The position numbers and the translations under genes were made by a program. A stretch of DNA of 64,000 nt from Candidatus Pantoea varia (GTDB taxonomy: Bacteria > Pseudomonadota > Gammaproteobacteria > Enterobacterales > Enterobacteriaceae), in contig NZ_FOVG01000001.1 in assembly GCF_900115075.1 (NCBI RefSeq), positions 2,232,001 to 2,296,000 on the forward strand, in the 5' to 3' direction. Below the pieces are notes generated by a model. It saw only the letters and a program-made list of their open reading frames with translations. It was not told the DNA's origin and made no database searches. Positions 48,599 to 50,448 of the stretch are shown one piece after another (position 1 is the first letter of the stretch; each line of letters opens with the position of its first letter).

Positions 48599-48677
48599 AA
48601 AGGTTCCTTGCGGTGAAAGGTGATTCCGGGTGGCTCAGGTAACGGTCAGGGATGTGATGTTCAATTCACCCAGGCCA

Positions 48678-48977
48678 TCAAGCCAGGAGTGACTCTTCCC
48701 AGGTTTTTCTTAAACTCACGACATAATCAAACAGGCCCTGAGCATCTAAGTCATCTTCGTCAATCAGGTCAGGATTAGAGCAATAAGAATCAACAGCTGA
48801 GAATACCGAGTCAAAATAACGTTGTGTATCTTTGTTTTGTTTATCCGCTGTATCAGCATCTCTGTGTTCACGCCATGCGTTTAAGTATTTTTCCTCAAAC
48901 TCTGGCGCCGAAACAGCACCTGAAACAAACGCATCGATTAGGGCTAACATATCTGCTTCGCTTTGATCAGTAGACAT
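48678..48977 (-). CDS. Colicin-D-type immunity protein
   Basis: A 99-residue, very acidic helical protein (MSTDQSEADMLALIDAFVSG, EFEEKYLNAWREHRDAD, DLIDEDDLDAQGLFDYVVSL). This is the pattern of the colicin-immunity (ImmD-like, PF09204-type) family that plugs the tRNase active site. I chose ATG 48977 behind GAAGGT; a GTG at 48986 is an alternative. It overlaps the toxin's 3' end by 11 bp, so translation is coupled and the cell is protected as soon as toxin is made. Confidence 0.78.
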   Translation of the reverse strand: MSTDQSEADMLALIDAFVSGAVSAPEFEEKYLNAWREHRDADTADKQNKDTQRYFDSVFSAVDSYCSNPDLIDEDDLDAQGLFDYVVSLRKTWEESLLA

Positions 48978-49347
48978 TACCTTCACCTTTCAGATCGGAA
49001 ATTTGAGTTTCGGATAACTTCCATCCAGAGATGAAATTACCATCAGGTTTAGTCATTACATCAATTTTAGTTTCAGGATTGTAGTAGTGGTTAACATCCT
49101 GATTCCATCGGTATTTACCGGCGATTTTTTGTGTCAGTGGATCATCTATATGCGCTTTGAGTGTCTGTTCATATGACTTCAATCCTTCGGCATTGGGAGT
49201 GCCCGACAGGTTGAAATCCACAGCGTGCTTGAATTTTTTCTGTAGCTGTCTGGTTTCAAAATTAACAAATTCTGATGGAGGTGGCTTAGGTACTTTTGAT
49301 AACGCAGACAGATTTTCTAATTCGCTTACCGTTCTCAGCCTACCCAT
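48967..49347 (-). CDS. Colicin-D-type tRNase toxin domain (C-terminal part)
   Basis: A 126-residue frame whose C-terminal about 95 residues match the colicin D nuclease, which cuts the anticodon loop of tRNA-Arg. The known active-site set is intact: KFKHAVD (Lys38, Lys40, His41, Asp44, equivalent to colicin D Lys608, Lys610, His611, Asp614) and FISGWK (Ser107, Trp109, equivalent to Ser677 and Trp679). The frame continues upstream of ATG 49347 as AQTGASVAAGLAMGRLR, a pretoxin-like linker, so the ATG is probably not the true start: the N-terminal domain sits in the other frame (next entry). The immunity gene follows. Confidence 0.82.
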   Translation of the reverse strand: MGRLRTVSELENLSALSKVPKPPPSEFVNFETRQLQKKFKHAVDFNLSGTPNAEGLKSYEQTLKAHIDDPLTQKIAGKYRWNQDVNHYYNPETKIDVMTKPDGNFISGWKLSETQISDLKGEGNVY

Positions 49348-49361
49348 TGCAAGACCTGCCG

Positions 49362-49955
49362 CTACAGAGGCGCCGGTCTGAGCAGACCTTTGTTATCCAT
49401 GATCTGATCGAAACCGGCTGGAGCATCGCCGCCGAGCTGTCCGGCGATCTTTTTGAATCCCTCGATATTGCCGTTATAAATTCCGCCAGCAGCCAACAGC
49501 CGGCCCGCGGCTTTGCTGTTGATGGTTTTTGCTGCCTGAGCATGTTGCATCGGTGCAGCAGGGCGCACGTGATATACAGGGCGTTTCAGTTGCCAGGCTA
49601 TGAGGTGGTTGAGCCGGGAGCGAAGTAACAGAGGCAGGTCATCGGCAAGGCCGCCAGATGTCGTCAGCACACCAGAGCTGGCATAGCCGATAATATTTTG
49701 TCTCAGCAGAACGAGCTGCCCGGATTTGATGTCGTCCAGCGTGTCACGGTATGCCATCCAGGGACGCTGCCAGTGGAACTTATGATACCGGCTGACAAAA
49801 AGGGTGTAGCCCTGCGGCAAATCCCACTCCTGGATGATGCGGTTTGGCAACGCGGTATTTGCAAGATCTCGTGCCGCCGTTTCCGGGTGGATAATGTGGG
49901 GAATGTCCTCAAGGCAGATGTCGTCCAGTGACTTTGCCTGACTGTAATGAAGCAT
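49362..49955 (-). CDS. N-terminal part of the colicin-D-type toxin protein, out of frame with its nuclease
   Basis: A 197-residue frame starting at ATG 49955 behind AAAAGGGAC. The first about 125 residues (LDDICLEDIPHIIHPETAAR; GYTLFVSRYHKFHWQRPWMA) form a domain I do not recognise. The last part (AAGGIYNGNIEGFKKIAGQL, GFDQIMDNKGL) looks like the glycine-rich pretoxin linker of polymorphic toxins. It stops at TAG, but after DNKGL a shift of -1 would continue directly into the linker and nuclease. So it is either a frameshifted toxin gene or one that needs a recoding event. Delivery route unknown; no secretion signal or PAAR domain seen. Confidence 0.55.
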   Translation of the reverse strand: MLHYSQAKSLDDICLEDIPHIIHPETAARDLANTALPNRIIQEWDLPQGYTLFVSRYHKFHWQRPWMAYRDTLDDIKSGQLVLLRQNIIGYASSGVLTTSGGLADDLPLLLRSRLNHLIAWQLKRPVYHVRPAAPMQHAQAAKTINSKAAGRLLAAGGIYNGNIEGFKKIAGQLGGDAPAGFDQIMDNKGLLRPAPL

Positions 49956-49965
49956 AATGTCCCTT

Positions 49966-50133
49966 TTACGCTGCCGTTATGTGCCCAATTATCAGGCATT
50001 CCTGACAACAGGCGAAGAAGCCCTGATATCCCCGTGGTGGGTACACCAGCAGGCGGGGAGCGGAGCGACTGGCATCAGGCTGTTCTGTTGTAGTCAGAAT
50101 TTTGTGGATGTAGTGCCAGACCCGGGTAATCAC
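49966..50133 (-). CDS. Possible small leader ORF before the toxin gene
   Basis: A 55-residue open frame from GTG 50133 (VITRVWHYIHKILTTTEQPD... ending LIIGHITAA) that stops 10 bp before the toxin start. Composition looks protein-like and the position is operonic, but it has no clear ribosome-binding site and I recognise no family. It could be a remnant of a longer upstream toxin part or chance. Confidence 0.3.
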   Translation of the reverse strand: MITRVWHYIHKILTTTEQPDASRSAPRLLVYPPRGYQGFFACCQECLIIGHITAA

Positions 50134-50149
50134 ACGTCACCGCGAATAC

Positions 50150-50430
50150 TAACGACGCTAACGCGCGGAACATGGCGCATGTAAATGCTAAATGATCCGT
50201 GTGTCAGCAAGGCGGCTAGCGCGCTTATCCCGGGGAGCTTACAGGAGTAAGTGACTCGGTTAAGCAAGCGCTGCCAACAACGCTGTCGCGCGGAACAAGG
50301 CGCATGTAAATGCTAAATGATCCGTGTGTCAGCAAGGCGGCTAGCGCGCTTATCCCGGGGAGCTTACAGGAGTAAGTGACTCGGGTAAGCAAGCGCTGCC
50401 AACGACGCTGACGCGCGGATCATGACGCAT
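50150..50430. repeat. 125-bp tandem repeat, two full copies plus partial ends
   Basis: Copies at 50162-50286 and 50287-50411 differ at only a few bases; a third partial copy begins at 50412 (CGCGCGGATCATG). Each unit contains an inverted core, GGGGAGCTTACAGGAGTAAG, and GCAAGCGCTGCCAAC. The core resembles an intergenic palindromic repeat common in Enterobacterales (CACTTACTnnTGTAAGCTCC on the other strand). It lies between the toxin cassette and mtnE. Confidence 0.8.
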
Positions 50431-50432
50431 TT

Positions 50433-50448
50433 AGCCGTCTAAGCGTCT
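50433..50448. promoter_or_regulatory. MetJ operator upstream of mtnE
   Basis: Two adjacent met boxes: AGCCGTCT (7 of 8 to AGACGTCT) and AAGCGTCT (6 of 8). They lie 86 bp upstream of mtnE, immediately after the tandem repeat. Confidence 0.75.

What the first reader, a model, noticed from the sequence alone, without database searches (positions are those of the whole stretch)
48678..49955. Colicin-D-type tRNase toxin/immunity cassette with an intact active site but a split reading frame
The nuclease keeps every residue known to matter in colicin D (KFKHAxD plus SGW), and the acidic immunity gene overlaps it. Its N-terminal 197-residue part is in another frame: it stops at TAG (49362) while the nuclease frame is open from the same spot. 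A -1 shift in a short window, which also holds the inverted repeat GGTCTGCTCAGACC, would give one protein of about 325 residues. The N-terminal domain is unknown to me and carries no colicin translocation domain, signal peptide or PAAR/Rhs part. It could be a silenced toxin, a recoded one, or a sequencing error. A retained immunity gene next to a broken toxin would be an orphan-immunity defence.
Basis: partly seen in the sequence, partly recalled or inferred. Interest (0 to 1): 0.8.

Follow-up and report, generated by a model that had tools for sequence, protein, structure and literature searches.

The report
Frame-broken tRNase effector, intact immunity
A recently acquired gene for a bacterial weapon protein that would cut the transfer RNAs of rival cells has lost its reading frame in this genome, while the gene that protects against the toxin is still whole; this looks like ordinary decay in a known kind of weapon.

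Summary
On the minus strand, 48678-49955 encodes a 197-residue carrier part, a colicin-D-type nuclease in another frame, and an overlapping acidic immunity protein. Relatives settle the split. G195 has the same carrier and nuclease in one frame of 329 residues. From an anchor upstream of the join, 22 of 22 relatives stay open for at least 139 codons, the window copy for 7. So the gene is broken; recoding has no support. The carrier ends in a linker that elsewhere follows Hcp, the type VI secretion (T6SS) tube protein. It is thus a T6SS-type polymorphic effector rather than a colicin. It lies in a 1.5-kb insert, absent from all 49 of 59 congeners that could be judged (my tally). At 12 loci with a close immunity homologue the immunity frame is whole in 12, but a complete effector gene is present in only 2, or 3 counting one cut by a contig end. 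Best reading: a recently acquired, inactivated effector on its way to an orphan immunity gene. Sequencing error is unlikely, not excluded. T6SS delivery, tRNA cutting and protection are inferred.

The parts
48630..50152 (.). Inserted islet, absent from congeners with both flanks on one contig
   Evidence: Blast of the window against congener G296 leaves this stretch unmatched, flanks 9 bp apart there
48678..48986 (-). Immunity gene, intact (colicin-like immunity, PF09204); ATG start possible at 48977
   Evidence: 55.7 bits, cut-off 22; pI 4.05
48967..49347 (-). Nuclease part of the effector, open frame of 126 aa from an internal ATG (Colicin_D, PF11429)
   Evidence: 65.6 bits, cut-off 25; PDB colicin D chains 1v74, 1tfo, 5znm, 1tfk
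49339..49385 (-). Stretch between conserved anchors in which the reading frame is lost
   Evidence: 47 nt here against 48 nt in 20 relatives chosen as in frame; frame open 7 codons here, 139 or more in 22 of 22 relatives
49375..49388 (.).
49380..49556 (-). Conserved linker, shared with Hcp fusions and other carrier types
49362..49955 (-). N-part: type-A carrier domain plus linker, 197 aa, ends at TAG
   Evidence: no Pfam match at E below 0.2 and no NCBIfam match; type-A relatives aligned

Best explanation
The locus is a horizontally acquired effector-immunity islet. Its ancestor made one protein of about 325 residues: a type-A carrier domain, a conserved linker with a short hydrophobic segment, and a colicin-D-type ribonuclease. 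That protein was most likely loaded on the type VI secretion machine (inferred from the linker shared with Hcp fusions), injected into neighbouring bacteria and cut their tRNA (inferred from homology), while the overlapping immunity gene protected kin. In this genome a small length change in the linker broke the frame (shown in the sequence as held). The carrier now ends at a TAG, so the nuclease should no longer be delivered (inferred). The immunity gene is whole (shown) and could still protect against neighbours with the intact weapon (inferred). The islet is on the way to becoming an orphan immunity gene.
For: One frame across the join in relatives: same carrier and nuclease in G195, same nuclease behind another carrier in G165, each with an overlapping immunity gene; 22 of 22 relatives open for 139 or more codons past an upstream anchor, the window for 7. 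Linker shared with Hcp domains (two tested, PF05638 and TIGR03344) and with annotated TssD/Hcp1 genes. Own genome has 2 TssC and 5 Hcp matches. Insert absent from all 49 congeners that could be judged (my tally). Nuclease dN 0.10 and dS 1.71 against G165. Immunity frame whole at 12 of 12 close loci, effector complete in 2 or 3. 51 neighbouring gene pairs without a broken frame.
Against: The window gene has no Hcp part and is not next to T6SS genes. TssC co-occurrence is no support once genomes under 3.0 Mb are dropped: 34 of 36 against 100 of 121, p = 0.11. No second isolate was available to confirm the break. The 12-locus set was found with the immunity protein, which favours intact immunity genes. 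Among the 8 loci found with the nuclease, 5 damaged effector genes and no damaged immunity gene would occur about one time in four by gene length alone (my arithmetic).
Confidence: 0.7

Rival explanations
1. Sequencing or assembly error: the gene is intact in the organism and the effector works.
For: One draft assembly of 12 contigs; no other stop in either part; nuclease, carrier and immunity otherwise conserved.
Against: 51 of 65 G296 ORFs have a window counterpart over more than 93% of their length, over 52,194 coding nt; no homopolymer over 3 at the place. The other 14 ORFs were not checked one by one.
Confidence: 0.13
2. Split into a self-directed toxin-antitoxin-like pair: the nuclease is still made from the internal ATG at 49347, 14 nt after the TAG, and the immunity protein must neutralise it inside the cell.
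For: An ATG in the nuclease frame follows the TAG closely; nuclease motif and immunity gene are intact.
Against: That ATG is not conserved: the methionine before the glycine-basic pair is I or L in several relatives. Nothing shows expression. The arrangement is found in this genome only among those looked at.
Confidence: 0.07
3. Programmed frameshifting gives the full-length protein.
For: A 28-nt overlap of the two frames with an inverted repeat nearby.
Against: No slippery heptamer of the X XXY YYZ type, repeat absent from 20 of 20 relatives, relatives need no shift.
Confidence: 0.03
4. The type-A carrier is not a T6SS cargo but belongs to conjugative elements, which carry or deliver it.
For: 452 of 72,556 plasmid records hold it, 433 typed conjugative; in R478 it lies beside TraG- and TrhH-type genes; transfer-like neighbours in G186 and in L091/L092 (gene labels recalled).
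Against: The linker is shared with Hcp fusions. 54 of 60 plasmid rows spread over the ranking are the same 64.7% match, so few independent cases. The window copy, its paralogue on C10 and several others have no transfer genes nearby.
Confidence: 0.1

Closest known systems
Hcp-ET specialised T6SS effectors of Enterobacteriaceae (Ma et al. 2017; that paper is not held, seen only through passages of PMC6730261 and PMC8262886)
   Same: Same linker between N-terminal carrier and exchangeable C-terminal toxin in the Hcp fusions found here; immunity gene behind; some lie among metabolic genes
   Different: The carrier is type A, not Hcp; the toxin is Colicin_D; the frame is broken
Colicin D and its immunity protein
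   Same: Nuclease domain and immunity family, gene order with the immunity gene behind the toxin
   Different: No match to colicin translocation or receptor domains, not on a small colicin plasmid, different N-part
CdiA-CT EC3006 and Kp342 (PMC9990079, passages)
   Same: Colicin_D-family nuclease used in contact-dependent killing
   Different: CdiA carrier and CDI delivery; reported to cut elsewhere on tRNA
Orphan immunity islet SAIDI-1 of Salmonella Typhi (PMC7400221, passages)
   Same: Immunity genes kept without the cognate effectors
   Different: Large mosaic islet; here one immunity gene still beside its broken effector
Tde1 with glycine zipper (PMC10240207, passages)
   Same: Glycine-rich hydrophobic stretch in a nuclease effector of the T6SS
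   Different: Resemblance only; homology not tested; ours lies between carrier and toxin

Membership tests
Colicin_D nuclease domain (PF11429) | Profile match over the curated cut-off | tested here: met
   65.6 bits against 25
Colicin_D nuclease domain (PF11429) | Catalytic histidine motif aligned with colicin D | tested here: met
   KFKHAVDF aligned with KYKHAGDF
Colicin_D nuclease domain (PF11429) | Cuts tRNA | not testable with these tools
   needs an assay
Colicin (diffusible bacteriocin) | Colicin receptor, translocation or inner-membrane-transport domains ahead of the nuclease | tested here: not met
   N-part and intact relative L010 match no such family
Colicin-type immunity protein (PF09204) | Profile match over the curated cut-off | tested here: met
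   55.7 bits against 22
Colicin-type immunity protein (PF09204) | Neutralises the toxin | not testable with these tools
   needs an assay
Hcp-ET specialised T6SS effector | Hcp domain in the same protein | tested here: not met
   no Hcp match in the N-part; so not filed as a member
Hcp-ET specialised T6SS effector | Secretion that needs the T6SS | not testable with these tools
   needs an assay
T6SS-type polymorphic toxin sharing the Hcp-fusion linker | Shared linker, exchangeable carriers and toxins, immunity gene behind | tested here: met
T6SS-type polymorphic toxin sharing the Hcp-fusion linker | T6SS genes in the same genome | tested here: met
   2 TssC and 5 Hcp matches; co-occurrence over genomes of 3.0 Mb or more not significant
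Programmed frameshift gene | Slippery site, and the overlap kept in relatives | tested here: not met
   none of X XXY YYZ type; relatives read in one frame
Orphan immunity gene | Intact immunity ORF without an intact cognate effector gene | tested here: met
   window; other loci. True only if the break is not a sequencing error
Orphan immunity gene | Protects against a neighbour's toxin | not testable with these tools
   needs a competition assay

The most novel reading that the evidence does not exclude
The type-A domain is an undescribed delivery module, matching no family in Pfam or NCBIfam, that carries exchangeable toxins. On some conjugative plasmids and in a transfer-like region of Mixta it sits among transfer genes and may be injected along with, or timed by, conjugation, so that these elements carry their own antibacterial warhead.
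Probability: 0.12. Interest if true: 0.7.

Novelty: new member of a known kind. Interest (0 to 1): 0.36.

Why it matters
It shows a weapon caught losing its toxin while the antidote stays whole; relatives reach the same outcome by what look like insertion sequences and deletions. It also exposes carrier domains joined by one linker to many toxins, including copies on conjugative plasmids annotated only as HNH endonuclease or hypothetical protein. Whether that carrier rides a T6SS or a conjugation machine can be tested directly.

Tried and rejected
Recoding was considered and rejected. My first spacing count looked only for anchors in one frame, so it could not have shown a broken relative; one search repeats it with an upstream anchor only. 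The AlphaFold2 model of the N-part from 3 sequences had mean pLDDT 36.6 and no fold search was made with it. Type-A and type-B carrier domains: profile comparison probability about 5%, homology not shown. T6SS co-occurrence was dropped as evidence after the genome-size control. Phage records: 1 hit, to the linker of an Hcp1-family gene. IMG/VR: no relative of the nuclease; for the N-part one contig, and with the alignment five loci: two with type-A carriers (one the same contig), two with type-B carriers, one cut at the linker. E. coli genomes: 853 of 5426 hold a partial match, none covers 80% of the cassette. Nuclease on plasmids: 50 records, all under 60% identity; in the 30 listed, mostly colicin D or pyocin-type names. 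PHROGs: only the linker matches, two families of unknown function. Papers: no paper held all of IncHI2, type VI secretion, effector, plasmid and HNH; listings gave nothing seen on this carrier. Passages only were seen of PMC9040868, PMC3942780 and PMC12605009; none seen mentions this carrier or linker. The inner-membrane-transport domain named in PMC9040868 (PF06958) did not appear among our Pfam matches.

Full report
What is there. The minus strand of 48678-49955 holds three open frames: a 197-residue N-part (49362-49955), a 126-residue nuclease ORF (48967-49347) and an immunity ORF (48678-48986) that overlaps it. The nuclease matches Colicin_D at 65.6 bits and the immunity protein its colicin-type family at 55.7 bits, both far over cut-off; the N-part has only a chance-level Pfam match (E 0.22) and none in NCBIfam. 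The nuclease aligns with the solved colicin D domains over residues 26-112, histidine motif and SGW included. The nuclease frame is open from 49392 and overlaps the N-part frame by 28 nt.

Relatives read through. In 246 genomes of the family the N-part or its linker was found in 36 and the nuclease in 11. In G195 the same carrier type and the same nuclease form one frame of 329 residues; in G165 the same nuclease follows another carrier in one frame; in both an immunity homologue overlaps the end of the toxin gene. Twenty distinct relatives that carry two anchors in one frame have 48 nt between them; the window has 47. That search could not have found a broken relative, so it was repeated with an upstream anchor only: 22 of 22 relatives stay open for 139 or more codons beyond it, the window copy for 7. 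No slippery heptamer of the standard type occurs, no homopolymer exceeds three, and the exact inverted repeat is absent from the 20 relatives. The gene is broken relative to its family; recoding has no support.

Error or mutation. The window is collinear with congener G296, the large blocks being 93-96% identical. Of 65 G296 ORFs of at least 100 residues, picked by a simple length rule, 51 have a window counterpart over more than 93% of their length, 52,194 coding nt in all. One of these pairs differs in length (133 against 179 residues, the window's being the longer). Of the other 14, 2 were partial (one at the window edge) and 12 had no counterpart; they were not checked one by one, and some lie beyond the window's end. 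An error at just this place is unlikely, but reads are needed: no second isolate was available.

Recent arrival. One search covered 60 genomes of the genus including the own one. For 49 of the 59 congeners its list shows both flanks on one contig (my tally), always at most about 0.2 kb apart; the other 10 (G240, G246, G258, G263, G267, G279, G283, G291, G294, G297) could not be judged. By G296 the insert is 48630-50152. G+C is 0.40 for the nuclease, 0.42 for the immunity gene, 0.55 for the carrier and 0.57 for the window. Against G165 the nuclease has dN 0.10 and dS 1.71, so the domain was under constraint over that divergence.

What kind of protein. The last third of the N-part is a linker that elsewhere joins other N-terminal domains to other toxins: a type B, two further types by eye, and Hcp. 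Two of the Hcp fusions were tested and match T6SS_HCP and the NCBI TssD model; E. coli and Salmonella genes annotated TssD or Hcp1 family share the linker. In ten proteins scanned, C-terminal parts matched Colicin_D in 2, DUF6883 in 1 and, below cut-off, HNH in 2; the C-terminal parts of the other 5 matched nothing. Hcp proteins with C-terminal toxins are known T6SS effectors (PMC6730261 and PMC8262886, passages). The window gene has no Hcp part, so it is not filed as a member of that group; that it works like one is inference. The own genome has two TssC and five Hcp matches. A crude association of carrier or linker with TssC (34 of 36 against 102 of 210, p = 4e-8) falls to 34 of 36 against 100 of 121, p = 0.11, when the 89 genomes under 3.0 Mb are dropped; I do not use it. 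Types A and B are not shown to be homologous and the structure model of the N-part failed.

Toxin lost, antidote kept. The immunity protein has matches in 3 of 61 genomes of the genus and 18 of 392 of the family, the own genome counted in both. Twelve loci match at E below 2e-17; nine weaker matches were left out, one of which (G068) has stops inside. The immunity frame is whole in 12 of 12. The effector gene is complete in one frame in 2 (G165, G195). In G230 carrier end, linker and nuclease are in frame, but the contig ends upstream and a stop falls a few residues early. In 2 the nuclease is complete but the gene is frame-broken (window, G190). In 3 only the last 23 to 40 nuclease residues remain (G067 and G297 beside transposase-like ORFs, judged by eye; G246). 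In 4 no such nuclease was found by tblastn (G041, where a carrier fragment runs into the immunity gene; G189; G376, behind an Hcp-like fusion with another toxin; G446). This set was found with the immunity protein and so favours intact immunity genes. The 8 loci found with the nuclease at 64% identity or more also all keep the immunity frame, 5 with damaged effector genes, 6 if G230 is counted; by gene length alone five such cases would fall this way about one time in four (my arithmetic). The pattern is suggestive, with precedents in print (PMC7400221, passages; rare cases in PMC12594252, passages).

Mechanism. Most likely the ancestor was injected by a T6SS and cut tRNA in the prey; which tRNA is open, because related CdiA domains cut elsewhere (PMC9990079, passages). 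The break separates carrier from toxin, so delivery should be lost, while the immunity gene can still protect. Shown here: domains, split, intact relatives, insert, whole immunity gene, repeated loss elsewhere. Inferred: delivery route, activity, protection, advantage.

A side lead. The type-A carrier or its linker occurs in 452 of 72,556 plasmid records, 433 typed conjugative, but 54 of 60 rows spread down the ranking are the same 64.7% match, so there are few independent cases; replicon typing was seen for three records only (IncHI2A for R478). In R478 the gene, annotated HNH endonuclease, lies among a lytic transglycosylase gene, TraG- and TrhH-type genes. G186 has a similar neighbourhood, and L091/L092 (the second with the contig length of a Mixta mediterraneensis record) what looks like an integrative element (labels recalled). 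Whether such elements deliver these toxins or merely carry them is untested.

Noticed in passing
50151-50433: A 125-nt repeat in two tandem copies (96% alike) plus the start of a third; related copies lie at many dispersed places in congeners. The insert's right end falls at the first copy.
   Followed up: partly
L078:12001-13578 (R478): Type-A carrier with an HNH-annotated toxin and a YrhA-family neighbour, next to conjugation genes on an IncHI2A plasmid.
   Followed up: partly
L004:5327-6896: Own genome, contig C10: a paralogous type-A gene in one frame with a weak HNH match, with a small ORF behind it and transposase-like ORFs beside it.
   Followed up: partly
L102:4488-5875: E. coli MCJCHV-1: a gene annotated tssD with the same linker and a small ORF behind it, among metabolic genes near metE, much like the window's islet.
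   Followed up: no
L094:4952-7745 (G190): Two effector cassettes in tandem, HNH-type and Colicin_D-type; the second has its carrier in another frame than the nuclease.
   Followed up: partly
L119:113-1779 (G376): A colicin-D-type immunity homologue behind an Hcp-like fusion with a different toxin and a small ORF, like an immunity array.
   Followed up: no
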